DNA of 32,154 nt, taken from NCBI GenBank assembly GCA_902793315.1, contig CADBCT010000002.1:66973-99126 (forward strand). Reading direction: 5' to 3'. The stretch comes from an uncultured Erysipelotrichaceae bacterium (lineage in GTDB: Bacteria; Bacillota_I; Bacilli_A; RF39; UBA660). Of the stretch, positions 10,375 through 31,908 are shown in pieces (the first letter of the stretch is position 1; each line of letters opens with the position of its first letter). The notes under the pieces were generated by a model. The model had not been told where the DNA came from. It was given only the letters and a program-made list of their open reading frames with translations, and made no database searches. The position numbers and the translations under genes are program-made.

Positions 10375-10397
10375 TCTAACACTCCTCTTATACAATT

Positions 10398-14841: not shown

Positions 14842-14853
14842 AAATACTGCCTC

Positions 14854-15129: not shown

Positions 15130-15164
15130 ATTTATTCCTCCAATATATACATATATTCCTATTA

Positions 15165-15193: not shown

Positions 15194-15217
15194 GCGATAT
15201 TAAACATTTACCCAAAC

Positions 15218-15243
15218 AATAAAAAGTAGGTTTTACCTACTTT
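15218..15243 (-). terminator. Terminator of the exported-protein pair
   Basis: AAAGTAGGT and ACCTACTTT (15223-15231 and 15235-15243) form a perfect nine-base stem with a three-base loop, followed by a T-rich stretch on the minus strand. The stop codon at 15237-15239 is within the stem. Confidence 0.85.
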
Positions 15244-15794: not shown

Positions 15795-15803
15795 AATTAC
15801 CTC

Positions 15804-17168: not shown

Positions 17169-17192
17169 TAGGTATCACATCCCACTATAATA

Positions 17193-17220
17193 ATTATAAC
17201 AAAAACTCAGTTCTTGTCAA
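17193..17220 (-). promoter_or_regulatory. Near-perfect sigma-A promoter of the exported-protein pair
   Basis: A perfect TTGACA (17215-17220 on the complement) and a perfect TATAAT (17193-17198) are separated by 16 bases, 25 bases before the GTG start. It is the best promoter match in the window. Confidence 0.85.
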
Positions 17221-17229
17221 TTAAACAAA

Positions 17230-17255
17230 AGAAAAAGCAAAGATTACTTTGCTTT
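17230..17255 (-). terminator. Terminator of the mraZ operon
   Basis: AAAGCAAAG and CTTTGCTTT (17234-17242 and 17247-17255) form a perfect nine-base stem with a four-base loop, then T-rich on the minus strand. The last gene's stop codon (17254-17256) overlaps the stem. Confidence 0.85.
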
Positions 17256-17781: not shown

Positions 17782-17795
17782 CAAATCATCCCTTT

Positions 17796-19934
17796 TTATT
17801 GATATTTAGGAGCTAATTTAAGTGTAATTTCCATTCCATTAGTAATAGCAGTCCCTGGAGCAACAGATTGTTCTGTAACATATCCTACTCCATCTAATTT
17901 AACCTTTAAACCTAGTTTTTGTAAAATATCTTTACCTACTTTTGAAGATAATCCTTGAACACTAGGTACTTTCATTGAACTATCATTAGTTATTAAATAT
18001 ATTATATCATTATTTGTCATTATATCACCACTATTTGGTGATTGATTAATAACTTTACTACCATTTCCAATTACTTGATACTTTATTCCTTTAGCAGTTA
18101 AGTCTAACTTCACATTCTCAGTTTTTTGATTGATAAAACTTTCTACTTGATACTTAGTAATATTAATAGTCTTTGAAGAGTTACTATCACTATTACCATA
18201 ATATTTTGATATATTAGCAACTATCTCTTTAACCGCATTACTAACTGGTTTTTGACTACCACCACTAGGTTTTTTAATTGAAGCATAGATAATTACTTGA
18301 GGATTACTCTTAGGATAAATACCTGCAAAAGAAGAAATAATATCTTCTTTACCACTTAGGTAACCCCCTCCTTTTTCATTAGCTATTTGAGCAGTACCTG
18401 TTTTACCTATTAATTCACCACTATCAATTCGATATCCACTACCAGTATTTCCATAACCATTAACACAATCGCTCATTAATTGAATCATTTTCTGTACCGT
18501 AGCAGTTGATGCAACTCTTTCTACTTCTTTACGTTTATTTTCAACGATAGTTTCCTTAGTATCTGAATCAACTATTTTTGAAATAACATATGGTTCTAGT
18601 AATACTCCATCGTTAGTAAGCGGAGTAAGTGCTTTAACATTTTGAATTGGTGTCGTAGTAATACCTTGTCCAAATCCAGCATTATAGATTTCTGTCTCAT
18701 ATTTAAAATCTAATTTACCTTTCATTTCATTAGGTAATTCAATACCAGTTTTTTTACCAAAACCTAATTTTTTGAAGTATTGTTTAAGCATTAAACTAGA
18801 CATATGTCTATTAATAAGATTAATAACTCCAACATTACTACTCATAGCATAACCTTTATCAAAGGAGATTACTCCCCAACCTCCACGGTCCCAGTCACCT
18901 ATCTCAGTACCATCGCTAGTAGTATAAACTCCTGAACGATATGTTTCACTACCATTATAAACTCCATTTTCCATTGCAGCCATATAAGTAAATGTTTTCA
19001 TAGTACTTCCAGGCTCATATGGAGAAGAAATCATCATATCAAGATAATTAACTAAATCTCGCTTATTCGGATCAAAAGAAGGACTACTACTAGTTCCTAA
19101 AACAGCACCAGTTTTAGCATCTAGAATAGTTATATGAAACCATTCCCAGTTATAACCTTTATGGGAATTATTTATAGCTTGTTCTATAAAGAATTGAATA
19201 TTAGAATCAATTGTTAAATAAATATCTTTTCCTTGAATAGCATCTTTTCTAACTACTGGTGTATCAGCTATTTTATAACCTTTTAAATCTTTTTGATAAG
19301 TAAGATGTCCATCTTCTCCTTTAAGTAATTTATCATACTGTTTTTCTACTCCTAATTCTCCAATTATATTAGATTTTTCATCAGTTTTAGTATAACCAAT
19401 TGTATAAGAAGCAAAGTTACCTTTAGGATAATATCTTTTAAAACTTTCAATAAAATCTAAACCAGGAAGATTTAAATCTTCTATTTTCTTCTTAGTTAAT
19501 TCATTTAAATCTTTACCTTTAGTACCAAACTCTGTTTGATAAACATTTTCTTTAGATAAATATTTTAATACATCATCTTTTTCCATTCCAATTATTGGAG
19601 CTAACTTAGTAGCTGTCTCTTCTTTATCTACAACATGTTGTGGTTTTTTCTTATTAGTTGTTCTTTTAGGATCTAAATAAGCTATTAATTTATATGATGC
19701 TACATTTTGAGCTAAAACATCACCATTTACTGAATAAATTGATCCTCTCATTGCTGAAATAGTTTCTGTTCTAGTAGTTCTATTACTAGCTAACTCTTTT
19801 AAATTAACACCATCTATTTCACTAGACATTCCTAATTGAATGATTCTCCCTATCATTAGGCAAAATAAAAGAAGAGAACCTAATATAACCAATTTAGAAT
19901 ATCTAATATTATTTTTTCTCTTCCTTTTAGCCAA
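17796..19934 (-). CDS. ftsI: Class B penicillin-binding protein with two PASTA domains (FtsI/PBP2x type)
   Basis: The 712-residue transpeptidase cross-links septal peptidoglycan. It has a basic cytoplasmic tail, one membrane anchor (about 14-32), the dimerisation domain with MRGSIYSVNGDVLAQN, and a transpeptidase domain with S310-T-M-K313, S365-S-N367 and K511-T-G-T. Two PASTA domains fill about residues 590-712 (RYQV... region and VPSVQGLSSKVGKDILQKLG onwards), as in Streptococcus PBP2x. The start is TTG 19934, 17 bases after ftsL, behind GGATGTGAT. Its place after mraZ-rsmH-ftsL is the standard ftsI position, which supports the division role over that of the PBP at 4412-6313. Confidence 0.93.
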   Translation of the reverse strand: MAKRKRKNNIRYSKLVILGSLLLFCLMIGRIIQLGMSSEIDGVNLKELASNRTTRTETISAMRGSIYSVNGDVLAQNVASYKLIAYLDPKRTTNKKKPQHVVDKEETATKLAPIIGMEKDDVLKYLSKENVYQTEFGTKGKDLNELTKKKIEDLNLPGLDFIESFKRYYPKGNFASYTIGYTKTDEKSNIIGELGVEKQYDKLLKGEDGHLTYQKDLKGYKIADTPVVRKDAIQGKDIYLTIDSNIQFFIEQAINNSHKGYNWEWFHITILDAKTGAVLGTSSSPSFDPNKRDLVNYLDMMISSPYEPGSTMKTFTYMAAMENGVYNGSETYRSGVYTTSDGTEIGDWDRGGWGVISFDKGYAMSSNVGVINLINRHMSSLMLKQYFKKLGFGKKTGIELPNEMKGKLDFKYETEIYNAGFGQGITTTPIQNVKALTPLTNDGVLLEPYVISKIVDSDTKETIVENKRKEVERVASTATVQKMIQLMSDCVNGYGNTGSGYRIDSGELIGKTGTAQIANEKGGGYLSGKEDIISSFAGIYPKSNPQVIIYASIKKPSGGSQKPVSNAVKEIVANISKYYGNSDSNSSKTINITKYQVESFINQKTENVKLDLTAKGIKYQVIGNGSKVINQSPNSGDIMTNNDIIYLITNDSSMKVPSVQGLSSKVGKDILQKLGLKVKLDGVGYVTEQSVAPGTAITNGMEITLKLAPKYQ

Positions 19935-19951
19935 GATATCACATCCTAATT

Positions 19952-20251
19952 CTAATTGTTACTAGCAACAGACTTTATATTACCATTATTATAACTTAAT
20001 CCTTGCTGTTCTGCAACTTCTTGAATCTTTGTCAATGAAGCCAATTCGTCAATTGTCATTGCAAGCGACTCATTAGTTTTCTTTTGAATTTCTATTTCTT
20101 TCTTTTGTTTCTCTACTTCAAAATTAATCTTCGCTAAAGTAGCTTTAGAAAAAACTATTGAAATAGGAGCTATAACCAACAAGAAAATAGCTAGAGAATA
20201 GATTAATTTCTCAAACTTAGACATTTTAATTTTCTTCTTGTACTTTTTCAT
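19952..20251 (-). CDS. ftsL: Cell division protein FtsL
   Basis: FtsL is recognised by place and shape rather than sequence: 99 residues, a Lys-rich cytoplasmic tail (1-14), one membrane segment (about 15-34) and an extracellular leucine-zipper-like coiled coil (about 37-75), located between rsmH and ftsI. In Firmicutes it pairs with DivIC/FtsB and activates FtsW-FtsI at the septum. GGAGTG precedes ATG 20251, and the gene lies ten bases after the rsmH stop. The Ser-Asn-rich end (residues 84-99) is not conserved in the family. Confidence 0.85.
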   Translation of the reverse strand: MKKYKKKIKMSKFEKLIYSLAIFLLVIAPISIVFSKATLAKINFEVEKQKKEIEIQKKTNESLAMTIDELASLTKIQEVAEQQGLSYNNGNIKSVASNN

Positions 20252-20261
20252 CTAATCACTC

Positions 20262-21191
20262 CTATTTTATTTTTTCAATTACTCTTAACTTAGAGCTTCT
20301 GGCTCTAGGATTATTCTTTACTTCTTCTTCGCTAGGACTAATTGCCTTATTATAAACCAATTTATAGTCTGGTAAATATTCTTCTGGTATATTAGGCATT
20401 CCTTTTACTTTATCATCTATTTTACATTTTTCATTAAATACTCTTTTTACAATTCTATCTTCTAATGAATGAAAAGTAATAATAGCGCAACGTCCCCCTA
20501 TGTTTAGCAAATCTAAAGCTTGTAATATTGCAGGTTCTAAGACATCAAGTTCATGATTTACTTCAATTCTTATTGCTTGAAAAATCTGTCTTGCTGGATG
20601 TTTATCAAGCCTAAATTTCATCGGAACTGCTGTTTTTATTACTTCTACTAATTCTAAAGTAGTTTCAATTTTTTTCTTTTCTCTATATTCAACTATTTTT
20701 TTTGCAATGTTATTAGCAAATTTAGACTCTCCATATTGTTTAAAAATCCTAGCTAATTCTGCTTTTGAATAGTTATTTACAACTTCATAGGCTGATAGTT
20801 TTTGACTTTTATCCATTCTCATATCAAGTCTAGCTTCATTATGATATGAAAAGCCTCTTTCACTATCATCTAATTGAGGCGAAGAAACCCCTAAATCAAA
20901 TAGGATTCCGTCTACCTTTGACACATTAAGTTTATTTAATTCTTCTTTCATGTGAACAAAATTACTCTTAATGATAGTGAAGTTAGTACCGATCTTTGAT
21001 AAGCGATCGGTACTATGCCGAATTGCTTCACTATCTTGGTCAAAGGCGAATAAATACCCCTCTTTTATTCTATCCAAGATGTTACTACTGTGTCCTCCAT
21101 AGCCTAAAGTCGCGTCTACAATAATACTATTTACTTTTAAATTTAGGGAGGAAATAGATTCATTAAGTAATACGCTTATGTGTTTTTCCAT
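20262..21191 (-). CDS. rsmH: 16S rRNA (cytosine-1402-N4)-methyltransferase
   Basis: RsmH methylates C1402 of 16S rRNA at the ribosomal P site using S-adenosylmethionine. The 309 residues match the usual size. Motifs present: HISVLLNESI at the start, the SAM-binding DATLGYGGHS near residues 26-35, FDLGVSSPQLDDSERGFSY near 99-117, LDMRMD, HPARQIFQAIRIEVN near 200-214, ITFHSLEDRIVK near 239-250 and NPRARSSKLRV near the end. It overlaps the mraZ stop as TAATG, showing translational coupling. Position after mraZ is standard for the dcw cluster. Confidence 0.97.
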   Translation of the reverse strand: MEKHISVLLNESISSLNLKVNSIIVDATLGYGGHSSNILDRIKEGYLFAFDQDSEAIRHSTDRLSKIGTNFTIIKSNFVHMKEELNKLNVSKVDGILFDLGVSSPQLDDSERGFSYHNEARLDMRMDKSQKLSAYEVVNNYSKAELARIFKQYGESKFANNIAKKIVEYREKKKIETTLELVEVIKTAVPMKFRLDKHPARQIFQAIRIEVNHELDVLEPAILQALDLLNIGGRCAIITFHSLEDRIVKRVFNEKCKIDDKVKGMPNIPEEYLPDYKLVYNKAISPSEEEVKNNPRARSSKLRVIEKIK

Positions 21192-21628
21192 TATAGATCA
21201 ACACTCTCGCTAAATAAATTTTCGGCTATGTCTGACATACTGTCCTTTGTAGAATTGAAGAAATCATTCCAAGCTTCTTGCGCCCAAATTTCAAGTCTAT
21301 CACCTGTTCCAATAATCACACAGTCTTTTACAATATTTGCATAATCAATTAATGGAGCAGTTACATTTACACGTCCTTGTTTATCCAATTCTACATTAGT
21401 AGCACCTGACATAAAGAAACGATTAAAAGTTCTCGCATCTTTCTTAGTGAAAGGCAAAGCATTAAGTTTAGTTGTAATTTTAGCCCAGTTTTCTAGCGAA
21501 TAGACAAAAAGACAATTTTCAATTCCTCTGGTAACGATAAATTCTTTGCCAAGTTCCCCGCGGAACTTAGCAGGAATAATAATTCTGTTCTTTTCATCTA
21601 TCGTATGATGATATTCTCCTATAAACAT
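21191..21628 (-). CDS. mraZ: Transcriptional regulator MraZ
   Basis: MraZ is a ring-forming AbrB-like DNA-binding protein that controls the dcw operon. The 145 residues hold two SpoVT-AbrB folds with the family signatures GEYHHTIDEKNRIIIPAKFR (residues about 4-23) and DKQGRVNVTAPL (about 84-95). I chose ATG 21628 over GTG 21640 because family members start MF-GEY and the GGGGGAT site lies just before it. Three direct repeats that look like MraZ binding sites lie directly upstream, so autoregulation is likely. First gene of the operon mraZ-rsmH-ftsL-ftsI-17254. Confidence 0.96.
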   Translation of the reverse strand: MFIGEYHHTIDEKNRIIIPAKFRGELGKEFIVTRGIENCLFVYSLENWAKITTKLNALPFTKKDARTFNRFFMSGATNVELDKQGRVNVTAPLIDYANIVKDCVIIGTGDRLEIWAQEAWNDFFNSTKDSMSDIAENLFSESVDL

Positions 21629-21631
21629 AAT

Positions 21632-21672
21632 ATCCCCCACTTTTCACCACAATCAACCACTACTTAAGTATA
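21632..21672 (-). promoter_or_regulatory. Three MraZ-type direct repeats and a -10 element upstream of mraZ
   Basis: On the minus strand three ten-base units follow each other: AGTGGTTGAT, TGTGGTGAAA, AGTGGGGGAT (21632-21661). The shared GTGG core with ten-base period matches the known MraZ box layout (three or four GTGG/TGGG repeats). The last unit also contains the ribosome binding site. TATACT (21667-21672) just upstream is a possible -10; no clear -35. Confidence 0.75.
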
Positions 21673-21740: not shown

Positions 21741-21769
21741 CAAAAAAAATCAACACCTAAGTGTTGATT
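21741..21769 (-). terminator. Terminator of the glycosylation genes
   Basis: AATCAACAC and GTGTTGATT (21748-21756 and 21761-21769) form a perfect nine-base stem with a four-base loop, followed by eight T on the minus strand. It overlaps the stop codon of the glycosyltransferase at 21768. Confidence 0.9.
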
Positions 21770-22658
21770 AATCTAAATTGATTTTAATTCTTATAACATA
21801 TGGTAATCTACCATTTATTTCTGAATATATTTTATTTAAATACAAGGAAAATAACCATAGATAGATGAATAATATTATAAACAGTAATACTAACAGGCAA
21901 ATAGTTAACTTAATATTTTGAATAAAAATGCTCATTAATAGCACAAGTAAAGACATTATTATTCCAAAAGCAGCCAATTTAGATAATGGTAAAATTGAAA
22001 AACTAATAATTCCTTTCAAGGCATATCTAAATTGATTAATTAAATTAAATTTACTCTTCCCTGCTTGCCTTTTGTTAGGTACATATGAAATTGAATGTTG
22101 TTTAAATCCTAAATAAGAAAACAAACCTTTTGTAAATCTATTCTTCTCGGTTATTTCAAGCATTGCTTTAACAACATTTCGTCGCATTACTCTAAAATCA
22201 GAAGCCCCTATTTCATAATTTTGACCTGTATTATTTTCCATAATCTTATAAAAACACTTTTTCATAAATCGTTGTATTTTCTTAGATTTTGAATAATCAT
22301 TTACCATTGTTACAATATCATAGTCAGAGTTTTTTTCTAAAAATTCTAACATCTCAACAATATATTTTGGATCTTGTTGCAAATCAGCATCTATAATTGC
22401 TACATAATCAGAAGCAGAATATTTAAAGCCTGCATAAATAGCAGCATCTTTACCAAAATTTCTTGTAAAGGATAATACTCTAACATTTCTATTTGTTAAA
22501 GCTAAATGCCTCATTTTTTTAAATGTATTATCAGTAGATCCATCATCTACGAAAATTATATTATGTTTTTTGTTTCTCAGTTTTTTTCTTATTTCTTTGA
22601 AAATTAATTCTATGTTTTCTTCTTCGTTTTTTGCTGGAACTATTATGTCTATGCTCAT
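21768..22658 (-). CDS. GtrB/CsbB/DPM1-type polyprenyl-phosphate glycosyltransferase (GT2)
   Basis: The 296-residue enzyme should move a sugar from a nucleotide onto undecaprenyl phosphate at the inner membrane face. The GT2 domain shows IIVPAKNEEENI at the start, FVDDGSTDNT, FTRNFGKDAAIYAGF and the metal-binding DADLQQDP, then GASDFRVMRR and NRFTKGLFSYLGF, the family's membrane-near signatures. Two membrane segments (about 225-280) and the end KIYSEINGRLPYVIRIK complete the GtrB layout. I chose ATG 22658 with GGTGAT upstream. It overlaps the yfhO-like gene by 98 bases in a different frame. It is a paralogue of the enzyme at 25275-26228. The sugar is unknown. Confidence 0.88.
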   Translation of the reverse strand: MSIDIIVPAKNEEENIELIFKEIRKKLRNKKHNIIFVDDGSTDNTFKKMRHLALTNRNVRVLSFTRNFGKDAAIYAGFKYSASDYVAIIDADLQQDPKYIVEMLEFLEKNSDYDIVTMVNDYSKSKKIQRFMKKCFYKIMENNTGQNYEIGASDFRVMRRNVVKAMLEITEKNRFTKGLFSYLGFKQHSISYVPNKRQAGKSKFNLINQFRYALKGIISFSILPLSKLAAFGIIMSLLVLLMSIFIQNIKLTICLLVLLFIILFIYLWLFSLYLNKIYSEINGRLPYVIRIKINLD

Positions 22659-25200
22659 ACTTATCACCGAACCTCTTTGCAAAAATCACTTTTATTTTAT
22701 CATAAAATAACAAAACATACAAAGCTATTAATGATATTATCATTCCTATTTTCATGCCATAAATATTATATTTTAATACCACTTTATGATTTCCAGCTGG
22801 AATATCAGCAGCTAATACAGCATCGACTAGAGCATACGTTTTTACTTGCTTATCATCAACGTATACTTTCCACCCTTTATCATATGGTATTGAAGTATAT
22901 AAAACCATATTGTTCCTTGCAGTTATTGTTCCTTCAATTCTATGTTCCTTAAAATCAGTTATTTTAAATGATCCTGAATTTAATCTTTTATAAGCGTTAA
23001 TGAACGTATCATTGTCAAAGCTATAAACTCTAAATTTGTCCTTTCCCTTAGGTGTATCATAACTTATATAAATATCATCGTATCCATTCATTTCAATAAC
23101 AGAATATTCCATATCACTTTTTATTTCCGAATAATCTATATCTGTATCTACATTAGATTCATATTCTTCTTTTCGATAATATAAAACATCATTGATAATA
23201 TAATAATTAACCGTATCATTTTCAATAAATGCATATAAATTAGTAGCATCGGTATGTAGAGAATATTTAATCACAATACTTCCATCATTTTCCTCAACTA
23301 ATTCTTTATCATAGTCTGTAATTTTAGTAAACGGACTCATTCCTGTAGTTATATTAATAAAATCATTTTGGTTTTTAATGGCATCTTTACTTGAACATTT
23401 CCAATCCCGAATATAAGTTGGTACAGCAAATGCAATACTATTATTATATTTAAATTTGAATGTATCATCATTTATTAACTTATAATCTTCTAAGTTGTTT
23501 TTTCTCTTAATCAACATATACTTTATATCAAACATCATGTCAAAAACTGGTGTTTGACTACTATATATGTATGAATTAGCCCCATTGTTCTTTATCCCTA
23601 ATTTACTTTGAAATTCATTAAAACCATAGCCATTCATAGAACTAAACGATGTAAACCCATAATAGTTTAACATTGATGAATCATTGTATGTAGCAAAGTC
23701 ATCAGTTGCAATTCTATAAAACAAATCATCTGAATCTTGTTTTTTAATTGCTTTTACTTTTGCTCCATATTCATCTAAAATTTCATTAAAATTCTTAACA
23801 TTTTGATCAATATTCCAATTAGTATTGGTATTATTTACTAGTTCATATGAAAGTATTCCTAATGCTAAAATAAACACTACTTTTTTAAATTTAGTATATC
23901 TAATCCCCAAATAACAAATGAAATACAAGACAATAATAATTATATTAGTATATAAATTTTTGACAGAAATAATTCTAACTTTCTTATTTAATAATAAAAA
24001 TACTAAAAATATTATAATAATTATAAATATAGCAAATACATATTTAAACTTAACTTTATCTAATTTCTCAAAAGAATAGGCACTAATAACAACCAAGACA
24101 AAAATATAAAGAAAAGAATATCGATATGGCAAATCGTTTGGAATATGAAATGCATGAAGTATAAAATCTAATTGAGGTATAAAAAATGGTAATATCATTA
24201 ATACTAGTAATACTAAATATGCTAACTTAACTCGAGTTTCAATTTTATGATTAAAAATAAACATTAATGCTAGCAATAGTGACAATACACCAGCATAAAT
24301 ATTAGGAGCATCTGTTTTAGATAAAACTGGTGTTGTTGAAAATACACCACTAAAATGCTTTTGCAATATTTCAAAAATAGTAAATGAATAATAGACAAAA
24401 TTAGGCATTGTATCAGTTGATGCGGAAGTTGTTGTAAATGCATAAAATTGTGGAATTAATAAAAATGCTAATAAAGACCCTGCAGTCAATGATGATACGA
24501 CAAAAAGTGATACTCTTTTGCCCTTATCAACATTTTTATTCAGAATTAAATATATTAAAAAATATACAACTGAAAAAATGCATATCATATAACCAATAAA
24601 GTAGTTTGAAAAAATACTTATTGCTAAAGATAAAGTATATAATTTCCACTTTCCTTCATCAATTAATTTTTCTATTCCAAGCACAACTAGCGGTAATAAA
24701 TATACTCCATCAAACCACATAAGATTCCAATAATATGCAGTAAAATACCCAGATAATGCATAAGATAAACCTAATAATATAAAATAAGCATTTTTTTTGT
24801 GAAATTTATTACATAAATAGTAAACCATTAAAGTTGCAGCTAATACTACTTTCAAAGCTATAATTATAGAAAAAGATGTTAATAATCCTTTTTTAGAAAA
24901 GAAAATCATTATCAAATTTAATGGACTTGATAAATAAGTTAAATAATTTCTATAAAAAGGTAATCCTAAGCCCATTGTAAAAGAATATGTAGACATAGAA
25001 AAAGTTTTTATACGATTATATAATTCAAACATAAAAGGACAATACTGATGAAAAAAGTCTACATCCAACAATCCGTTTTTACCTAAAGGTGTTACATCTT
25101 GTAAAAAATAAATTATACCGGTTAATATAATCGAACAAAATATAGTAAAAATATAAATCTTATTTTCAGAAAAAAATTTTTTAATTTGTCTTTTTTTCAT
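22561..25200 (-). CDS. YfhO-family multi-spanning membrane protein (probable GT-C glycosyltransferase)
   Basis: The 879-residue protein has about 12-13 membrane segments in its first 450 residues, a large extracellular region, and a last membrane segment near the C-terminus. YfhO signatures are FTMGLGLPFYRNYLTYLSSP, ALSGYFTAYYWNLMWFDGVYLLPL and SNYFIGYMICIFS; the last quarter has the typical SMNGYGFN and AVDAVLAADIPAG-like pattern. In Listeria and Bacillus, YfhO works with a CsbB/GtrB-type enzyme to add sugars from undecaprenyl phosphate to lipoteichoic acid outside the cell. A GtrB-like gene follows directly here, which fits. I start at ATG 25200 (GGTG upstream) rather than GTG 25212. The final 32 residues are Lys/Arg/His-rich and are read from DNA that also encodes the start of the next gene. 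Confidence 0.87.
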   Translation of the reverse strand: MKKRQIKKFFSENKIYIFTIFCSIILTGIIYFLQDVTPLGKNGLLDVDFFHQYCPFMFELYNRIKTFSMSTYSFTMGLGLPFYRNYLTYLSSPLNLIMIFFSKKGLLTSFSIIIALKVVLAATLMVYYLCNKFHKKNAYFILLGLSYALSGYFTAYYWNLMWFDGVYLLPLVVLGIEKLIDEGKWKLYTLSLAISIFSNYFIGYMICIFSVVYFLIYLILNKNVDKGKRVSLFVVSSLTAGSLLAFLLIPQFYAFTTTSASTDTMPNFVYYSFTIFEILQKHFSGVFSTTPVLSKTDAPNIYAGVLSLLLALMFIFNHKIETRVKLAYLVLLVLMILPFFIPQLDFILHAFHIPNDLPYRYSFLYIFVLVVISAYSFEKLDKVKFKYVFAIFIIIIIFLVFLLLNKKVRIISVKNLYTNIIIIVLYFICYLGIRYTKFKKVVFILALGILSYELVNNTNTNWNIDQNVKNFNEILDEYGAKVKAIKKQDSDDLFYRIATDDFATYNDSSMLNYYGFTSFSSMNGYGFNEFQSKLGIKNNGANSYIYSSQTPVFDMMFDIKYMLIKRKNNLEDYKLINDDTFKFKYNNSIAFAVPTYIRDWKCSSKDAIKNQNDFINITTGMSPFTKITDYDKELVEENDGSIVIKYSLHTDATNLYAFIENDTVNYYIINDVLYYRKEEYESNVDTDIDYSEIKSDMEYSVIEMNGYDDIYISYDTPKGKDKFRVYSFDNDTFINAYKRLNSGSFKITDFKEHRIEGTITARNNMVLYTSIPYDKGWKVYVDDKQVKTYALVDAVLAADIPAGNHKVVLKYNIYGMKIGMIISLIALYVLLFYDKIKVIFAKRFGDKYEHRHNSSSKKRRRKHRINFQRNKKKTEKQKT

Positions 25201-25246
25201 ATCATACACCACTATAATTTTATCAAATATTATTATAAAAGTATAT

Positions 25247-25274
25247 AAAAAAAATTAGTAGTAAACTACTAATT
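25247..25274 (-). terminator. Terminator of the heptose operon
   Basis: AATTAGTAGT and ACTACTAATT (25253-25262 and 25265-25274) are perfectly complementary around two bases (so the working loop is larger), followed by eight T on the minus strand. It starts next to the stop codon of the GT2 gene at 25275 and separates it from the yfhO-like gene. Confidence 0.85.
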
Positions 25275-26228
25275 CTAATCATACTTATCTATTTTTTTTA
25301 GGCCATCACTACTCTCTTTAATTATAAACTTTGGCCTATCTTTTATTTCTAAATATATTTCTGCTAAATATTCTCCTATTATTCCCAAAACCAATAAAAC
25401 TAATCCAAATCCGAACAATAACACACACATTATAGATGAATATCCTGACGATATATCAGGCGAAATAAAATGATTTATGATTGTAAAGAACATATAAGCA
25501 ACAGCAATTATACAAAAGATGACCCCAGTAACTGAAGCAATCTTTAAAGGCACAGTGGAAAAAGAAGTAATTCCTCTTAAAGCATAATTGAAAGCACTTT
25601 TCATTGGCAGCTTTGTTTCACCAGCTATACGTTCATGATTTTCAAATGAAATCCATTTTGTCTTAAAACCAACCCAAGAAAAAATTCCTTTTGTAAATCT
25701 TTCATTTTCCTTCAAAAGTAGTACTGAGTCTACCATTTGTCTAGTCATTAATCTAAAATCACGGGCACCATTTTTTATTTCATAATTAGAAATCTTACTC
25801 ATCAACTTATAAAATAAATTAGCAAACAATGACCTAAATAATGGTTCGTTTTTACGATCTTTTCTATATGTTGCAACACAATCAAAATCTTCTGTTTTTA
25901 ATATTTGATACATTTTTTCTATTAAATATGGAGGATCTTGTAAATCAGAATCCAAAATTGCTACAAAGTCTCCAGTAGAAGCTTTTAAACCAGCATACAT
26001 TGATGCATCTTTTCCAAAATTTCTGGAAAAAGAAAGATACTCATAATTGTATTTTTTATGATACTCTTTCATTATTTTTAAAGTATTATCAATAGACGCA
26101 TTATCTACTAAAATCACTTCAAATTTAACTTTAGACATACTTTTTTTTAATTTAAGTAGTTCTTTATTTAAATATGGAAGAGCTTTTTCTTCATTATAGC
26201 AAGGTATAATTAATGATATTTTATCCAT
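25275..26228 (-). CDS. GtrB/CsbB/DPM1-type polyprenyl-phosphate glycosyltransferase (GT2)
   Basis: This 317-residue membrane enzyme has the full GtrB layout: SLIIPCYNEEKAL, VDNASIDNT, FSRNFGKDASMYAGL, the metal site DSDLQDPP, GARDFRLMTRQMV, ERFTKGIFSWVGF, then two membrane segments (about 228-255 and 266-290) and EIYLEIKDRPKFIIKES at the end. It should load a sugar on undecaprenyl phosphate. ATG 26228 was chosen over GTG 26237, because that GTG is part of the AGGTGAT site. It overlaps the SDR gene by eight bases and is the last gene of the heptose operon, so a heptose or heptose-derived sugar is a plausible donor, an inference from context. The canonical members use UDP-Glc, UDP-GlcNAc or GDP-Man. 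Confidence 0.9.
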   Translation of the reverse strand: MDKISLIIPCYNEEKALPYLNKELLKLKKSMSKVKFEVILVDNASIDNTLKIMKEYHKKYNYEYLSFSRNFGKDASMYAGLKASTGDFVAILDSDLQDPPYLIEKMYQILKTEDFDCVATYRKDRKNEPLFRSLFANLFYKLMSKISNYEIKNGARDFRLMTRQMVDSVLLLKENERFTKGIFSWVGFKTKWISFENHERIAGETKLPMKSAFNYALRGITSFSTVPLKIASVTGVIFCIIAVAYMFFTIINHFISPDISSGYSSIMCVLLFGFGLVLLVLGIIGEYLAEIYLEIKDRPKFIIKESSDGLKKIDKYD

Positions 26229-27258
26229 TATTATCACCTATTATTTTATCTAAAATTTCACAAGTATATTTAACAGTTTTATCTATTCCCTCTTTTAAAG
26301 ATGTTTTAGGTTGCCAACCATAATTGTTATAAGCATGTTCATTTGATAAGCAAGTATATTTAAGAACTTCATGTTCTAATAATTCTGTAGATATAGGATA
26401 TGGCTTACTGTACAATTCCGGATAGTTATTCCAAAAATGAGAAACTTTCATATACTTAGTTTTTATCTTTTCTTTACCCATAGCTTCAGCTATTAAAGCT
26501 GTTATTTCCTTTATAGATACAACTTTGCCAGTTGAAACATTAACAGTATCAAAGCTTTTATTTTTTCTAACTAATAAAGCCAAGTCAATTAAATCATCAA
26601 CATAAACAAAATCTCTTTTTTGATTTCCATCAGAATGAAGTATTGGACTATTACCTTTGTACAATTCTCTAATTATATAAGCCATTACAGGAGGCTGTGT
26701 TCTTAAACAATCAGCATGTGGTCCATAAACATTAGCGAATCTCAATATAACTATTGGTATATGATATGCATCATAAAAAGCTTTACATAATTGTTCTGCA
26801 GCATATTTCGTACTAGGATATATTAAACTAGGTTTTTCAACAACATCTTCAACAGAAGGAAAATCTGTATTATTTTCATAAACTGCTGAGGTACTGGCAA
26901 AAATAATTCTTTTTACTCCATACTTTCTAGATAAATTTAAAATTATTGTAGTACCTACTATATTAACCTCGGTAGCCTCAACTGGATTATTTTGACAATC
27001 AGGAAGTGGTGTAATACCAGCGAAATGATATACAGTATCAAATTTATTTTTAGAAAATAATTCTTCCATATACTCAAGATTTCTAATATCTTCGCGACAT
27101 ATTTCTTGACTAAAATCATGGCCTTCAAATACTAAATTATCATCTCTTCCATACGAAAAATTATCCAATAAGGTTACTTCTTCACCCTCTAGAAAAAGTC
27201 TATATGCTAATTGAGAACCAATAAAGCCAGCTGCACCCGTAATTAAAATTTTACTCAT
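26221..27258 (-). CDS. Extended SDR-family NAD-dependent sugar-nucleotide epimerase/dehydratase
   Basis: The 345-residue enzyme acts on a nucleotide sugar. It shows the NAD-binding G8-x-x-G11-x-x-G14 motif, D32 at the end of the second strand (NAD rather than NADP), H-F-A-G near 78-81, a Ser-rich strand ASTSAVYE (121-128) and the catalytic Y147-P-S-T-K151. LRFANVYGPH and KRDFVYVDDLIDLALL are typical of UDP-glucose 4-epimerase and GDP-mannose dehydratase relatives. The active-site Thr/Ser before the Tyr is present, but the D-E pair of 4,6-dehydratases is not evident, so an epimerase or related enzyme is more likely. It overlaps gmhA by eight bases, and its GGAGG site lies inside gmhA. It may convert the activated heptose made by this operon, or supply another sugar. 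Confidence 0.9.
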   Translation of the reverse strand: MSKILITGAAGFIGSQLAYRLFLEGEEVTLLDNFSYGRDDNLVFEGHDFSQEICREDIRNLEYMEELFSKNKFDTVYHFAGITPLPDCQNNPVEATEVNIVGTTIILNLSRKYGVKRIIFASTSAVYENNTDFPSVEDVVEKPSLIYPSTKYAAEQLCKAFYDAYHIPIVILRFANVYGPHADCLRTQPPVMAYIIRELYKGNSPILHSDGNQKRDFVYVDDLIDLALLVRKNKSFDTVNVSTGKVVSIKEITALIAEAMGKEKIKTKYMKVSHFWNNYPELYSKPYPISTELLEHEVLKYTCLSNEHAYNNYGWQPKTSLKEGIDKTVKYTCEILDKIIGDNNG

Positions 27259-27838
27259 CTTTTAAGTAACCTCCTTTACCATATAATTTATAAAGAACTG
27301 AAATTATTAAATGTTCTAAAAATAAATGAATATCTTCAGTAATTTGCATATGTTCAATATTAGAATTTATATTATAATCTGATATCTTTTTTAGCTTGCC
27401 GCCATCATAACCAGTTAAACTAATGATTGTAGCATTTTTTCTTTTAGCATAAGAAACAGCTTTTATAATATTTTGAGAATTACCACTACCAGAGATAGCA
27501 ATAACAATATCATTTTTATTTATTCCTATATTTTTCAATTGATACTTGAACACTTCATCATATCCTTCATCATTTGCTATTGCTAAAATAAGAGGAACAT
27601 TATCGTTTAAACAATTAAACTTAAAAGTTTTATCAGTCTTTTTAAATATAGCTTTATTAAAATCATTATTAATATGAGAGGCAGTAGACCCACTACCACC
27701 ATTTCCAAAAATGAATATACGTTTTTCATTGTTTAATGCATCAATTAGAATATCTATTATTGATATTATATTTTCAACATCCAAGGCATGCAAAATCTCT
27801 ATCTCATTATTAATATATTCATCTATTATTTTTTTCAT
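27251..27838 (-). CDS. gmhA: Sedoheptulose 7-phosphate isomerase (SIS domain, GmhA type)
   Basis: GmhA turns sedoheptulose 7-phosphate into D-glycero-D-manno-heptose 7-phosphate, the first step of heptose nucleotide synthesis. The 195 residues match the family (about 190-200). The phosphate-binding SIS loops are FGNGGSGSTASHINNDF (about 44-60) and ISGSGNSQNI (about 114-123); the catalytic Glu and His fit TEDIHLFLEHL near 169-179. An AGAGGTG site precedes ATG 27838. It lies nine bases after the heptose-kinase gene and before the SDR gene. The kinase and nucleotidyltransferase-phosphatase genes beside it make the GmhA assignment secure over other SIS proteins. Confidence 0.93.
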   Translation of the reverse strand: MKKIIDEYINNEIEILHALDVENIISIIDILIDALNNEKRIFIFGNGGSGSTASHINNDFNKAIFKKTDKTFKFNCLNDNVPLILAIANDEGYDEVFKYQLKNIGINKNDIVIAISGSGNSQNIIKAVSYAKRKNATIISLTGYDGGKLKKISDYNINSNIEHMQITEDIHLFLEHLIISVLYKLYGKGGYLKDE

Positions 27839-27847
27839 AATGCACCT

Positions 27848-28834
27848 CTAATCTTTATAAACTATTCTACTTCCTTCATCATCTATTTTAAAATTGACTT
27901 CTTTATATGATGATAATGCTTTTCTTACTTTATTCTTTTTATTTAAAGGAACATACAAAAGCAAGAATCCTCCTCCACCAGCACCTAGAATTTTACCTCC
28001 TAGAGCTCCGTTCTTAATAGCTAAATCATACATATTATTAATATCTTTATTGGATACTCCACTTGCAAATTGTTTTTTTATTTCCCATGCTTTTCCAAGT
28101 AAATATCCAAAATTATCCAAATCATTATTCAATAAATATTCTTCAGATAAGGTTACCATCTCGACTAATGAATCTAATATTTCACTTTTGTTTTTAGTAG
28201 TCTTCTTTTGTTCTTTAAAAATCGCTTTAGAGTCACGCGCATTTCCAGTATAAAAAAACATCAAATGATTCAACAAGTTTTCTTTAATTTCATCATTTAA
28301 ATTAAGCTTTTTTATTGAAACCGTATCATCATTATTGAAGATATACTTATTAAATCCCCCATATGAAACAGCATATTGATCTTGAATTCCTATTTCTTGA
28401 TGTAATCTATTTATTTCTATATCAATTGCTTCTTTAGCCAGTTGTTCTTTTGAAACTTTTTCGCCCTTATAAGCATGTAAGGCATTTAAAACTCCAACAG
28501 CTAATGATGATGATGATGCTAATCCAACTCCAAGATTTGTCATAGGTAAATCAGCTAAATATAGAATTTCAATCCCTGAAGTAATATTAGTTATTTTTAA
28601 TGCTTCTCGAATAATATTGTGTTTAACTTCATCAACATTATCAACCAATTCATTATCATTATAAACTAATCGAATTTTATCATCAAATCTTTTATTTACT
28701 ACTATATATACATGCATATCTAATGCTGTACTAATTACACATCCATACCCATATTTAGAGTTATGAAAGTAGTCATAAAAATCAGTACCTCCACCGAAAA
28801 ACGAAGCACGTAATGGGGTTTTTGAAACAATCAT
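27848..28834 (-). CDS. hddA: D-glycero-D-manno-heptose 7-phosphate kinase (GHMP family, HddA type)
   Basis: HddA phosphorylates heptose 7-phosphate at C1 (alpha), giving the 1,7-bisphosphate of the GDP-heptose route. The 328 residues are the usual length. GHMP motifs: SKTPLRASFFGGGTDF at the N-terminus, the ATP-binding LGVGLASSSSLAVGVLNAL near 99-117, and KILGAGGGGFLLLYVP near 279-294. EIGIQDQYAVSYGGFN near 150-165 is typical of HddA. ATG 28834 follows directly on the stop codon of the fusion gene, and the GAGGTGAT ribosome binding site lies inside the last codons of that gene. The kinase is unlike HldE of the ADP-heptose route, which argues for GDP-heptose here. Confidence 0.93.
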   Translation of the reverse strand: MIVSKTPLRASFFGGGTDFYDYFHNSKYGYGCVISTALDMHVYIVVNKRFDDKIRLVYNDNELVDNVDEVKHNIIREALKITNITSGIEILYLADLPMTNLGVGLASSSSLAVGVLNALHAYKGEKVSKEQLAKEAIDIEINRLHQEIGIQDQYAVSYGGFNKYIFNNDDTVSIKKLNLNDEIKENLLNHLMFFYTGNARDSKAIFKEQKKTTKNKSEILDSLVEMVTLSEEYLLNNDLDNFGYLLGKAWEIKKQFASGVSNKDINNMYDLAIKNGALGGKILGAGGGGFLLLYVPLNKKNKVRKALSSYKEVNFKIDDEGSRIVYKD

Positions 28835-30028
28835 TTAATCACCTCTTAAATAGTCTGTAACTGCATCTTTAAGTGAATATTCTTCACCAACTAAAATGCC
28901 CTTAACTCTTGCAGCCTTAGCAGCTTCCATATCTCTTTCATCGTCCCCAAAAAATACGCATTCAGTTAAATTTAATGACAAATCCTTTTGAGCTTGATAT
29001 AAAAGTCCGGGTTTTGGTTTTCGACACAAACAGCCATCATCCCAATTATGTGGACAATAATATATATAATCTATTTTTGCACCTGCCTTAGCTAAATCAG
29101 ACTGCATTTTATCATGAATTTTATTTAAATCATCAATAGTTAAATTCCCTCTAGCAATTCCTGGCTGATTAGTAATCAAAATAGTTATTATATTATTATC
29201 ATTTAACATTTTTATGGCTTCAATTGCGCCACTTAGCCATATAAAATCTTTTGCCTTTTCAATGTAACAAGCTTTAGGAGCTCGCTTATTTATAGTACCA
29301 TCTCTGTCCAAAAAAACCACCTTTTTGGGTTTAAAAAATTCATCTGTTAATGACATTCTTTCAAATGATCCAATCGAATAATATCTATGAGAAGTAACAG
29401 TAGCAAATAATCCTTTATTAGAAACAAGTTTAGGAAAAACAGCTTTTGAAAAATTTCTATTACTACCATATTCTAAATCTAATACATTTTTTTTAACAAT
29501 AGCATATCCTATTTCTACTCCATTAAGACTTTTATCTTCACGAGATTTATCATAAGTTATAACTAAACCATCACTATTTACAAAAACATTATTTTTTGTA
29601 TACAAATCAATATTATCATAAACAGATAATTCTATGCTTGCTTTATGCTTATAAAAATTATTGACTAAACTATCAAAATCAATTGGACAATAATTATCAC
29701 AATACATAAGAAGAAAACTTTCCTCAAGTTTTTCTTTAGCGTGTATTAATCTATCTAATGTATCATAAGACTCCGGAGTAATATCATATGATATTTTTAC
29801 TCCATACTTTTCTCCGGTACCTAAATAGTTAATGACTTTTTGAGGTAAATATCCTAATAATATTACAATGTTTTTTATGCCAATTTTTTTTACTTGCAAT
29901 ACTAAATGTTCAATAAATGGAACTCCATTAATTGGATACATTGGTTTTGGATTATTATTAGTAAATGGTTTTAAGCGTGTTCCCATTCCACCAGCCAAAA
30001 TAACAGCTTGCTCAACTTGTTTTTTCAT
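28835..30028 (-). CDS. Fused heptose-1-phosphate nucleotidyltransferase (HddC-like) and heptose-1,7-bisphosphate phosphatase (GmhB-like)
   Basis: This 397-residue protein joins the last two steps of activated-heptose synthesis. Residues 1-230 are a sugar-1-phosphate nucleotidyltransferase: L11-A-G-G-M-G-T-R-L, PKPMYPING (27-35), and YCDNYC (109-114) as the metal-binding segment. Residues 235-397 are a HAD phosphatase of the GmhB type: VVFLDRDGT with D241 and D243 as nucleophile and acid, LITNQPGIARG, the zinc loop CPH-(6)-CLC and FFGDDERDMEAA. Together they would remove the 7-phosphate and add the nucleotide, presumably GMP, to the 1-phosphate. A GAGG site precedes ATG 30028. It is the first gene of the operon, driven by the promoter at 30055-30083. 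Confidence 0.93.
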   Translation of the reverse strand: MKKQVEQAVILAGGMGTRLKPFTNNNPKPMYPINGVPFIEHLVLQVKKIGIKNIVILLGYLPQKVINYLGTGEKYGVKISYDITPESYDTLDRLIHAKEKLEESFLLMYCDNYCPIDFDSLVNNFYKHKASIELSVYDNIDLYTKNNVFVNSDGLVITYDKSREDKSLNGVEIGYAIVKKNVLDLEYGSNRNFSKAVFPKLVSNKGLFATVTSHRYYSIGSFERMSLTDEFFKPKKVVFLDRDGTINKRAPKACYIEKAKDFIWLSGAIEAIKMLNDNNIITILITNQPGIARGNLTIDDLNKIHDKMQSDLAKAGAKIDYIYYCPHNWDDGCLCRKPKPGLLYQAQKDLSLNLTECVFFGDDERDMEAAKAARVKGILVGEEYSLKDAVTDYLRGD

Positions 30029-30054
30029 AGTAAAACCTCATTTTCACTGTTTAT

Positions 30055-30083
30055 AGTATAGCATATTTGTTTTTTTTAGTAAA
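30055..30083 (-). promoter_or_regulatory. Promoter of the heptose operon
   Basis: TTTACT (30078-30083 on the complement), a 17-base spacer ending in TGC, and TATACT (30055-30060), with an extended -10. The leader to ATG 30028 is about 20 bases. Confidence 0.75.
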
Positions 30084-30108
30084 ACATTAAAAAAAGTTAA
30101 TTTTTATA

Positions 30109-30151
30109 TACATACCATTATTGATATATGCTATACTTAAAAAAAGTATAG
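30109..30151 (+). promoter_or_regulatory. Extended -10 promoter of the DUF2079 gene overlapped by a hairpin
   Basis: TGC-TATACT (30129-30137) is an extended -10; TACATA (30109-30114) is a poor -35 at 17 bases. CTATACTT and AAGTATAG (30131-30138 and 30144-30151) form a perfect inverted repeat over the -10 and the predicted start of transcription, ending at the GAGGTGA ribosome binding site. Confidence 0.6.
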
Positions 30152-30162
30152 AGGTGAGATTT

Positions 30163-31908
30163 ATGAAGAGAGTTTTCAAAACATCTAATATTATTTTCAG
30201 ACTATTATCAACATGGTTAATTACTTTCATAGCATGCAAAATAATTACAAAAGATACTTTTTATAATATTAGCTTTGCTAGTGACTTAAGTTTACCTATT
30301 ATTATATTAATATTCTTTATCACATTTATTATATTAACCATCATTAGTTATTTTCTTAAAAAAGAGAATTTTGAATATATTTTAGCAATAATTTTATACA
30401 CAATTTGTTCAATATATTGGTCATTTTCAATTCGAAATGCATTTTTTCTTTTGACACTATTTTTATTATTTATACTATTATACAAATACAAATTAGAAAG
30501 TATTAAAATGAACATACAAATAAGTAATAAAACAACTATGGTAATTGTTGCTTTATCTGCAATAATAATGTTTTCAAGCATTGCAATAGTAACAGTTCTT
30601 AGATATAAAACTTTTAGTGCATCAAATTTTGATTTAGGAATACCTTCACAAAACTTTTACTATATGAAAAAAACTTTAATTCCATATTCTACAACTGAAA
30701 GAAATCAATTTCTAAGTCATTTTGCAGTGCATATATCACCTATTTATTATCTTGGATTACCTATATATGCAATTTTTTCAAGTCCTACTACATTACAACT
30801 ACTAGCTGCTTTATTAATAGCTTCTGGTATTATTCCAATATATTTAATTTGTAAAAACAAAAAATTTTCTAACATTATAATAGTATTGCTCTGCCTATTA
30901 TATGCGTTATATGCTCCAGCTATATGTAGTACATTTTATGATTTTCATGAAAATACATTTTTAACCCCACTCTTACTATGGTTATTTTACTTCTATGAAA
31001 AAAAGAATTATAAACTATACTGGCTGGCACTGCTCCTGGTATTATTTGTAAAAGAAGATGCTCCATTATATATTATAATTTTTGGTATTTATACCTTGTT
31101 TGATAATAATAAAAAACTAGGCATTACAACTACTTTAATTGGTTTAATATACTTTATTGCGGTAAATATCATATTGACACATATCGGTGAAGGACCGATG
31201 TCATATAGATACGAAAATTTAATTCTTGATAACGAGGGAATGTTGGGTGCTATTAAAACTATAATTTCTAATCCGGGATACTTTTTGAATCAATTAACAT
31301 TATCTGATCCAGCTCAAAGCGCTTACAAAATAGAATATCTATTGCTTTTGTTTTTACCACTTGGATTTATTCCTTTTAAACATAAGCAATGGAAGAATTA
31401 CATATTACTAACACCTTTATTATTAACTATTATGACAACTTATATATATTGTTATCTTATCGATTTTCATTATAGCAACGGAGTTGTTGCTTTCATATTT
31501 TATTTAATGATATTGAACGTAAAAGAATTTAAAAAATATAATTATTTGTTTGTATGCTTATTTGGAAGTATATTAGTTTATACAGCTCAACCTTATAACC
31601 AAATATCACTATACTCTACTATGTATTATAAGGAATTTACAATGTATAATGGAATGGAAACATTTTTAAAAAACGTACCAAAAGATGCCTCAGTAAATGC
31701 ATCTGGTCTTATTGTAGCGCATTTAGCTAATCGAGATACATTATATGAAATTTTATATCATGACAATGAACCAGATGTGGATTATGTAGTATTAGATGGT
31801 AGAATAATAGATGAATATAATGATGTATATGATGCCTATATCTCTAATGGCTACTATGAGTATAAAAAATCGGATAATATAACTATCCTAAAAGATGGTA
31901 ATAATTAG
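30163..31908 (+). CDS. DUF2079-family multi-spanning membrane protein (putative GT-C glycosyltransferase)
   Basis: The 581-residue protein has about 11-12 membrane segments and a small extracellular C-terminal domain. DUF2079 hallmarks are FDLGIPSQNFYYMKK near residues 150-165, FLSHFAVHISPIYYLGLPIYA, YDFHENTFLTPLLLW and KEDAPLYIIIFG near the middle, and the late VNASGLIVAHLANRDTLYE and VDYVVLDGR. The early Asp in FDLG and the His residues are in outward loops, as in GT-C enzymes that use polyprenyl-phosphate sugars; activity has not been shown for the family to my knowledge. I chose ATG 30163 (GAGGTGA upstream) over TTG 30121. It is divergent from the heptose operon and has its own terminator, suggesting a second transfer enzyme for the same lipid-linked sugars. 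Confidence 0.85.
   Translation: MKRVFKTSNIIFRLLSTWLITFIACKIITKDTFYNISFASDLSLPIIILIFFITFIILTIISYFLKKENFEYILAIILYTICSIYWSFSIRNAFFLLTLFLLFILLYKYKLESIKMNIQISNKTTMVIVALSAIIMFSSIAIVTVLRYKTFSASNFDLGIPSQNFYYMKKTLIPYSTTERNQFLSHFAVHISPIYYLGLPIYAIFSSPTTLQLLAALLIASGIIPIYLICKNKKFSNIIIVLLCLLYALYAPAICSTFYDFHENTFLTPLLLWLFYFYEKKNYKLYWLALLLVLFVKEDAPLYIIIFGIYTLFDNNKKLGITTTLIGLIYFIAVNIILTHIGEGPMSYRYENLILDNEGMLGAIKTIISNPGYFLNQLTLSDPAQSAYKIEYLLLLFLPLGFIPFKHKQWKNYILLTPLLLTIMTTYIYCYLIDFHYSNGVVAFIFYLMILNVKEFKKYNYLFVCLFGSILVYTAQPYNQISLYSTMYYKEFTMYNGMETFLKNVPKDASVNASGLIVAHLANRDTLYEILYHDNEPDVDYVVLDGRIIDEYNDVYDAYISNGYYEYKKSDNITILKDGNN

What the first reader, a model, noticed from the sequence alone, without database searches (positions are those of the whole stretch)
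21768..31908. A possible heptose-based envelope glycosylation system in a Gram-positive: GDP-heptose pathway plus two GtrB-like lipid loaders and two GT-C-like membrane proteins
In one locus the window encodes GmhA, HddA and a fused HddC-GmhB, which is the whole route from sedoheptulose 7-phosphate to nucleotide-activated D-glycero-alpha-D-manno-heptose. Directly downstream are an SDR enzyme and a GtrB/DPM1-type GT2, then a YfhO-type protein and a second GtrB-type GT2; a DUF2079 protein is divergent. Known three-part systems (CsbB/GtrB, flippase, YfhO) add GlcNAc or similar sugars to teichoic acid. DPM1 enzymes use GDP-mannose, and GDP-heptose has the same manno ring, so a polyprenyl-phosphate-heptose donor is chemically reasonable. 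I know of no such donor being described. The link is inference from gene order; the enzymes of the pathway are read from motifs.
Basis: partly seen in the sequence, partly recalled or inferred. Interest (0 to 1): 0.85.

Follow-up and report, generated by a model that had tools for sequence, protein, structure and literature searches.

The report
Heptose operon with altered lipid-sugar loader
A small uncultured bacterium carries an operon that should make an activated seven-carbon sugar and sits with membrane glycosylation genes, and one of its lipid-loading enzymes has an altered nucleotide pocket, which makes a lipid-carried heptose donor, not described in the papers searched, a testable though unproven idea.

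Summary
On the minus strand they form one apparent operon ending at a terminator-like site: hddC-gmhB fusion, hddA, gmhA-like SIS, SDR, GT2a, YfhO, GT2b. It is an accessory island upstream of mraZ, absent there in three same-genus genomes. The heptose-YfhO link is not general: in 193 genomes of the order, hddA (12) and YfhO (101) co-occur at chance, and GT2-YfhO pairs recur at 16 loci in genomes with no hddA match. Both GT2s are GtrB/PgfS-type (known members use UDP-sugars), not DPM1-type. Two findings nevertheless favour the core idea. (1) GT2a has Asn-Ala where Asp43-Gly44, at the nucleobase, is invariant in 156 other GtrB-type enzymes; the only other two deviants are GtrBs directly downstream of heptose genes in two relatives, while nine distant GtrBs in heptose-positive genomes are normal. 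(2) The operon's nucleotidyltransferase has lost the LGTxG base loop and has TxxRL, as in a CTP-using enzyme; GDP-heptose is therefore doubtful and CDP-heptose plausible. Best reading: NDP-heptose (perhaps CDP), probably modified by the SDR, loaded on undecaprenyl phosphate by GT2a. No biochemistry; confidence about 0.4.

The parts
28835..30028 (-). hddC-gmhB fusion: sugar-1-phosphate nucleotidyltransferase (about residues 1-232) + GmhB-type HAD phosphatase (235-386)
   Evidence: base loop YDTLDRL instead of LGT[AG]G; AlphaFold pLDDT 88, HddC 5xhw TMt 0.86
27848..28834 (-). hddA-like GHMP kinase (heptose 7-phosphate 1-kinase)
   Evidence: NCBIfam HddA 156.6 bits, best PDB 3k85
27251..27838 (-). 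gmhA-like SIS isomerase; subgroup with Asp for the presumed catalytic Glu and EDxH for QExH
26221..27258 (-). SDR, epimerase-type (YxxxK present, no dehydratase DE pair)
   Evidence: 56% identical ortholog in the same position in G245
25275..26228 (-). GT2a: GtrB/PgfS-type polyisoprenyl-phosphate glycosyltransferase with N43-A44 (GtrB numbering) in the nucleobase pocket; ORF may begin at GTG 26237
22561..25212 (-). YfhO-family (PF09586) GT-C-like membrane protein
   Evidence: 500.5 bits, full length; PgfM2/PgfM1 best NCBIfam models, below cut-off
21768..22658 (-). GT2b: second GtrB/PgfS-type GT2, normal D43-G44; Asn at R122 and Ser at R125; overlaps yfhO by 98 bp
21748..21769 (-). terminator-like hairpin + T-run directly after GT2b
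   Evidence: 3 sites found in the region, 1.6 expected
30029..30120 (.). divergent intergenic region, presumed promoter region of the operon
   Evidence: gene arrangement; weak -10/-35-like match at 30083-30055, no enrichment over shuffles
30121..31908 (+). DUF2079 membrane protein, divergent neighbour; possible GT-C partner, membership in the system not shown
   Evidence: PF09852 155.4 bits

Best explanation
The operon converts sedoheptulose 7-phosphate to a nucleotide-activated heptose (isomerase, 1-kinase, 7-phosphatase, nucleotidyltransferase; inferred from family membership). The nucleotide is probably not GDP and may well be CDP (inferred from the base loop). The SDR then acts on the nucleotide-heptose, most likely as an epimerase or C4 oxidoreductase (inferred). 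GT2a loads the heptose on undecaprenyl phosphate (inferred from the GtrB fold, conserved acceptor and catalytic residues, gene overlap with the SDR, and its uniquely altered nucleobase pocket). A GtrA-type flippase encoded elsewhere and a GT-C protein (YfhO, or the divergent DUF2079) would transfer it outside to an unknown envelope acceptor (inferred). GT2b, with a normal pocket, probably serves a conventional UDP-sugar with YfhO (inferred). Shown here: gene content, order, conservation and residue changes. Not shown: any activity, sugar or acceptor.
For: Seven co-directional genes with short gaps or overlaps (0, 9, -8, about -8, 62-74, about -98 bp depending on start codons) and a terminator-like site after GT2b. 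The four-gene cassette hddC-gmhB, hddA, gmhA, SDR is conserved in order at 50-56% identity in another family (G245), so the SDR travels with the heptose genes there. GT2a keeps D94, D96, R122, R125, D157, R200 and has the GtrB fold. D43 and G44 are invariant in 78/78 other family GT2s and 78/78 distinct viral GtrBs; GT2a has N, A. The only other deviants, at 44, are the two GtrBs downstream of heptose genes in G185 and G028. Nine distant GtrBs in heptose-positive genomes are normal. Counting two lineages, p about 8e-5. The nucleotidyltransferases of the window, G245 and a phage heptose cluster have TxxRL at the base loop, as in glucose-1-phosphate cytidylyltransferase 1TZF (T108-G-G-R111-L), against LG[TSN]xG in 21/21 other heptose-locus relatives. 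A GtrA gene exists in the genome on C3.
Against: In G245 the gene after the cassette is a different GT2, though the contig ends soon after. GT2a relatives at 45-54% identity occur in 112 of 193 genomes, nearly all without hddA, so the family's ancestral donor is not heptose. Known GtrB-type loaders use UDP-sugars (PMC8035078, PMC4728340). There is no flippase gene in the operon. The altered-pocket pattern rests on three genes in two lineages; position 44 was noticed in the survey itself, so the p-value is optimistic; and the G185/G028 nucleotidyltransferases have the normal LGTAG loop, so pocket changes do not map simply to one nucleotide. The Thr that contacts cytosine in the CTP-specific CpgD is Arg in the window by the LicC alignment, so CTP use is a prediction only. 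The heptose could instead be used by GTs of the C3 glycan cluster.
Confidence: 0.4

Rival explanations
1. The operon makes a nucleotide-heptose that cytoplasmic glycosyltransferases build into a capsule or teichoic-acid-like polymer, for instance those of the genome's C3 cluster. GT2a, YfhO and GT2b are an ordinary CsbB/PgfS-YfhO decoration unit using UDP-sugars that happens to share the island.
For: YfhO and hddA are statistically independent; GT2-YfhO pairs recur in genomes with no hddA match; several hddA loci in relatives are polysaccharide-type clusters with TagO/WecA-like genes, ABC transporters and ordinary GTs; C3 holds GT2, GT1, ABC transporter and ligase genes.
Against: Does not explain the changed nucleobase site in GT2a and in both other heptose-adjacent GtrBs, unchanged elsewhere, or why GtrA-GtrB follows gmhA by 15 bp in G185.
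Confidence: 0.35
2. [quoted passage not shown]
For: Overall best family matches of the nucleotidyltransferase include mannose-1-phosphate guanylyltransferase and HddC; the G185 and G028 heptose operons with a GtrB have the usual LGTAG loop.
Against: Base loop of the window enzyme is not GTP-type; both GT2s are GtrB-type by sequence, and GT2a by fold; PfDPMS keeps the Asp that GT2a has lost (PMC5526996).
Confidence: 0.13
3. A Pgf-like protein glycosylation system: the SDR is a PgfE-type UDP-sugar 4-epimerase feeding both GT2s, YfhO is PgfM-like, and the heptose genes are a separate accessory upstream in the operon.
For: Best NCBIfam matches of both GT2s are PgfS and of YfhO PgfM2/PgfM1; Pgf is GT2 + epimerase + two membrane proteins (PMC5856776); SDR orthologs occur without hddA in G172 and G068 beside GtrA, GT2 and an NTP-transferase.
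Against: The SDR is orthologous to one inside the G245 heptose cassette, where no PgfS-type GT2 is seen, and scores far below the GalE cut-off (139 against 262); only one YfhO; PgfS scores below cut-off.
Confidence: 0.12

Closest known systems
CsbB-GtcA-YfhO (three-component teichoic acid glycosylation, B. subtilis/S. aureus/Listeria; PMC5836110, PMC8035078)
   Same: GtrB-type GT2 and YfhO-family GT-C in one operon; Gram-positive-type cell wall genes nearby
   Different: Two GT2s, no flippase in the operon, upstream sugar-biosynthesis genes, altered nucleobase pocket in GT2a; CsbB and relatives load GlcNAc, Gal or Glc
Pgf system of Streptococcus mutans (pgfS-pgfM1-pgfE-pgfM2; PMC5856776)
   Same: PgfS-type GT2, YfhO-type membrane protein and an epimerase-type SDR in one cluster
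   Different: One YfhO not two, two GT2s not one, heptose genes, SDR not a recognised GalE
[quoted passage not shown] Campylobacter capsules, PMC10680097)
   Same: All four activities predicted, clustered with an SDR
   Different: HddC and GmhB fused; nucleotidyltransferase base loop is not GTP-type; GmhA subgroup with Glu to Asp
Polyisoprenyl-phosphate GTs GtrB (5EKP, PMC4728340), ArnC and DPMS (PMC5526996)
   Same: GtrB-type sequence and fold; GT2a keeps all tested catalytic and acceptor residues
   Different: N43-A44 in GT2a; DPMS-type architecture absent
Glucose-1-phosphate cytidylyltransferase RfbF (1TZF)
   Same: TxxRL base loop shared with the operon's nucleotidyltransferase
   Different: Overall the domain scores better against HddC, MurU and mannose-1-phosphate guanylyltransferase models; the match to the RfbF model covers only the N-terminal part

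Membership tests
Multi-component transmembrane glycosylation (CsbB-GtcA-YfhO type) | Membrane-linked GT-A (GtrB-type) enzyme with acceptor/catalytic residues | tested here: met
   GT2a: D94, D96, R122, R125, D157, R200 kept; fold GtrB. GT2b keeps D157 and R200 but not R122 or R125
Multi-component transmembrane glycosylation (CsbB-GtcA-YfhO type) | GT-C-type glycosyltransferase in the operon | tested here: met
   YfhO PF09586 500.5 bits
Multi-component transmembrane glycosylation (CsbB-GtcA-YfhO type) | GtrA/GtcA or Wzx flippase | tested here: inconclusive
   None in the operon; one GtrA (PF04138, 90 bits) elsewhere in the genome, on C3. Known systems can share a distant flippase (PMC8035078)
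Multi-component transmembrane glycosylation (CsbB-GtcA-YfhO type) | Lipid-linked monosaccharide and its polymer acceptor | not testable with these tools
   needs lipid and cell-wall mass spectrometry
Pgf protein glycosylation (S. mutans) | PgfS equivalog score | tested here: not met
   287 and 206 bits against a cut-off of 500; best-matching model all the same
Pgf protein glycosylation (S. mutans) | Two YfhO-type proteins PgfM1 and PgfM2 | tested here: not met
   one YfhO in the operon and in the 70%-complete genome
Pgf protein glycosylation (S. mutans) | UDP-glucose 4-epimerase PgfE | tested here: inconclusive
   SDR best GalE 139 bits against cut-off 262
GDP-heptose pathway | GmhA, HddA and GmhB present and clustered | tested here: met
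   assignments below equivalog cut-offs
GDP-heptose pathway | GTP-type HddC nucleotidyltransferase | tested here: not met
   LGTxG-type loop replaced by YDTLDRL; 21/21 other heptose-locus relatives keep it, G245 is the second exception
DPM1/DPMS | DPMS-type sequence and fold | tested here: not met
   GtrB 214 bits against DPMS 61; TM 0.77-0.78 against 0.55
Cytidylyltransferase (RfbF/LicC type) | CTP-type base loop and CTP use | tested here: inconclusive
   TxxRL shared with 1TZF and LicC the best single PDB hit, but the RfbF model matches only the N-terminal part; activity untested

The most novel reading that the evidence does not exclude
A heptose-based envelope modification in a Gram-positive lineage in which a cytidylyltransferase-like enzyme makes CDP-heptose and a GtrB-type enzyme with a re-shaped nucleobase pocket turns it into undecaprenyl-phosphate-heptose, a lipid donor found in none of the papers searched.
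Probability: 0.22. Interest if true: 0.75.

Novelty: new variant of a known kind. Interest (0 to 1): 0.5.

Why it matters
If GT2a loads a heptose, it would add a seven-carbon sugar to the lipid-linked donors known for extracytoplasmic glycosylation, and would give CDP-heptose, whose physiological role is described as elusive (PMC11573728), a possible use. The D43/G44 pocket site and the TxxRL loop are simple sequence markers to predict nucleotide use in GtrB-type loaders and heptose nucleotidyltransferases, and to mine for similar systems. If not, it is still a clear case of a heptose cassette placed in front of a common GT2-YfhO unit.

Tried and rejected
DPM1-type identity of the GT2s: rejected by sequence and fold. 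General co-distribution of heptose genes with YfhO: rejected. A single clade of heptose-associated GtrBs: not supported; GT2a does not group with the G185/G028 pair. Dehydratase function of the SDR: not supported, the DE pair is missing. The Tyr two residues before the metal-site Asp, shared with RfbF, was considered as a second CTP marker and dropped, because relatives with a normal LGTxG loop also have it. Finding more operon copies through genome contigs with the hddA protein gave only a Chloroflexi locus with a normal loop. A viral-contig scan with the GT2a protein alone found nothing; scans with alignments worked. The plasmid search with the fusion gave only 26-32% matches among the rows listed. 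Literature phrase search for undecaprenyl-phosphate-heptose: no paper, which does not prove absence.
Full report
OBSERVATION. The window lies at G000:C2:66973-99126 of a 1.07 Mb, 70% complete, low-GC genome assembly. From the divergent region at 30029-30120 the minus strand reads hddC-gmhB fusion, hddA, gmhA-like SIS, SDR, GT2a, yfhO, GT2b. Gaps and overlaps are 0, 9 and -8 bp for the first three junctions; with the likelier ATG starts the SDR-GT2a overlap is 8 bp, the GT2a-YfhO gap is 62-74 bp and YfhO and GT2b overlap by 98 bp. A terminator-like hairpin with a T-run follows GT2b directly (21769-21748); then come mraZ and mraW. I therefore treat the seven genes as one transcription unit (inference; promoter-like matches were not above the shuffled expectation).

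ACCESSORY ISLAND. In three same-genus genomes (mraW 79-85% identical) the mraZ-mraW-ftsL-PBP block is conserved, but other genes lie upstream of mraZ and the operon is absent there. Those genomes show no hddA or YfhO match in the searches made.

HEPTOSE SIDE. The kinase is closest to solved HddA-type kinases (3k85, 4n3o), the SIS protein to phosphoheptose isomerases, and the C-terminal HAD domain to GmhB phosphatases. The SIS protein belongs to a subgroup, shared by many heptose loci, in which the presumed catalytic Glu is Asp and QExH is EDxH (residue roles from my knowledge of GmhA structures). None of hddC, hddA and gmhA reaches its NCBIfam equivalog cut-off. A four-gene cassette with the same fusion and order occurs in another family of the class (G245: 54, 50, 56 and 56% identity). 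There it is followed by a different GT2 and, soon after, the contig end. SDR orthologs without hddA occur in G172 and G068 next to GtrA, a GT2 and an NTP-transferase, so the SDR is not strictly tied to heptose. The SDR has YxxxK but no dehydratase DE pair. An SDR acting on the nucleotide-heptose has precedents in Campylobacter heptose clusters (C4-dehydrogenase, reductases; PMC10680097).

NUCLEOTIDE. In 21 of 21 other heptose-locus nucleotidyltransferases aligned, the base loop is LG[TSN]xG; the window has YDTLDRL and G245 YETGLRL. A 90.6 kb viral contig (L238) carries SIS, HddA, transketolase halves, an RmlC-like protein, SDRs and a nucleotidyltransferase 42% identical to the window's, with DDTGRRL. 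The CTP-using RfbF of known structure has T108-G-G-R111-L at the aligned place. That its Arg111 matters for substrate binding is from memory only. LicC, another cytidylyltransferase, is the best single PDB sequence hit of the domain (65.9 bits), just ahead of mannose-1-phosphate guanylyltransferase (61.9) and HddC (56.7). By fold the nearest structures are GMPP, MurU and HddC. So GDP is not established and CDP is plausible. The cytosine-contacting Thr of CpgD (PMC13228409) is not conserved in the window, so this remains a prediction. CDP- and UDP-heptose are known from other, HldE-type enzymes, with physiological roles described as elusive (PMC11573728).

LOADER SIDE. GT2a and GT2b are GtrB/PgfS-type by profile and PDB search and, for GT2a, by predicted fold (GtrB TM 0.77-0.78, ArnC 0.73, DPMS 0.55). 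The model has mean pLDDT 82.6 and is weaker in the juxtamembrane part. Known loaders of this type use UDP-sugars (PMC8035078). GT2a relatives at 45-54% identity are in most of the 112 of 193 genomes of the order that match it at E <= 1e-60 and often pair with YfhO: 17 GT2-YfhO pairs were found among listed hits, only the window's in an hddA genome (a lower bound because the hit list was cut). hddA was found in 12 of 193 and YfhO in 101 of 193, with 6 in common (Fisher p = 1). The heptose-YfhO link is therefore particular to this island.

POCKET. The GtrB structure places Asp43 on the nucleobase, and the equivalent Asp39 of PfDPMS contacts guanine (PMC5526996). Positions 43-44 are Asp-Gly in all 78 other family members examined and in 78 distinct viral GtrBs. 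GT2a has Asn-Ala. The only other deviants are two GtrBs downstream of heptose genes: G185 (Asp-Ala, after gmhA through a GtrA gene that starts 15 bp from gmhA) and G028 (Asp-His, in a run with an acyltransferase and a GtrII-type protein). Those two form one clade apart from GT2a and also carry Glu at D157. Nine GtrBs lying elsewhere in heptose-positive genomes are Asp-Gly. Counting the pair as one lineage, two of two deviant lineages being heptose-adjacent has p about 8e-5. Position 43 was chosen from the structure papers and the GT2a alignment before the survey; position 44 was noticed in the survey, and relatedness among the normal sequences is ignored, so this p-value is optimistic. GtrBs within 10 kb of hddA in 2 of 11 other genomes is itself more than the 1.9% per genome expected from density (p about 0.02), but envelope genes cluster anyway. 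An Asn at 43 could pair with cytosine better than with uracil or guanine (chemical reasoning, untested). GT2b is normal at 43-44 and is probably a conventional loader, though it has lost R122 and R125.

CONCLUSION. Which GT-C protein acts (YfhO or DUF2079), which flippase (a GtrA on C3) and which acceptor are unknown.

LIMITS. The genome is incomplete; relatives are unnamed in the tools used; hddA searches sampled 193 genomes of the order and 395 of the class; only part of the GtrB hit list was read; the viral GtrB set is skewed to one sub-type; absence of a published undecaprenyl-phosphate-heptose rests on a phrase search of open papers.

Noticed in passing
L238 (IMGVR_UViG_3300010233_001188), 33-6821: A 90.6 kb viral contig carries a heptose set with split transketolase, RmlC-like protein and a TxxRL-type nucleotidyltransferase.
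   Followed up: partly
G000:C3, L067 8406-14570: Glycan cluster with GtrA, a UbiA prenyltransferase and a HAD-domain protein close together, suggesting a polyprenyl-phosphate-pentose (DPR-like) route; nearby an O-antigen-ligase/GT1 fusion and a choline-binding-repeat C39 protein.
   Followed up: no
window 22561-22658: yfhO and GT2b overlap by 98 bp in different frames, an unusually long overlap between two apparently intact genes.
   Followed up: partly
window 27251-27838 and gmhA of L002, L017-L021, L055, L057, L059, L060: A GmhA subgroup in heptose loci has Asp for the presumed catalytic Glu and EDxH for QExH; whether its substrate is the usual one is untested.
   Followed up: partly
L021 13985-14962 and L019 16128-17081: GtrB-type enzymes beside heptose operons with Glu in place of the putative catalytic Asp157 (Asp in all 156 others) and several changed donor-loop residues.
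   Followed up: partly
L072 494-5400 and L073 8176-13071: Conserved cluster of GtrA, short GT2, SDR (50-53% to the window SDR), NTP-transferase and an LPG_synthase_TM protein in genomes with no hddA match; product unknown.
   Followed up: partly
window 10457-14608: 1383-residue protein without Pfam match inside the division/cell-wall gene region; similar to part of an ORF in L068 and to a gene at the same place in same-genus L322.
   Followed up: no
window 2207-21640: The mraZ-mraW-ftsL-PBP block is separated from a second PBP, mraY and ftsW by genes of unknown function, desulfoferrodoxin, an ABC transporter and a LysR regulator.
   Followed up: no
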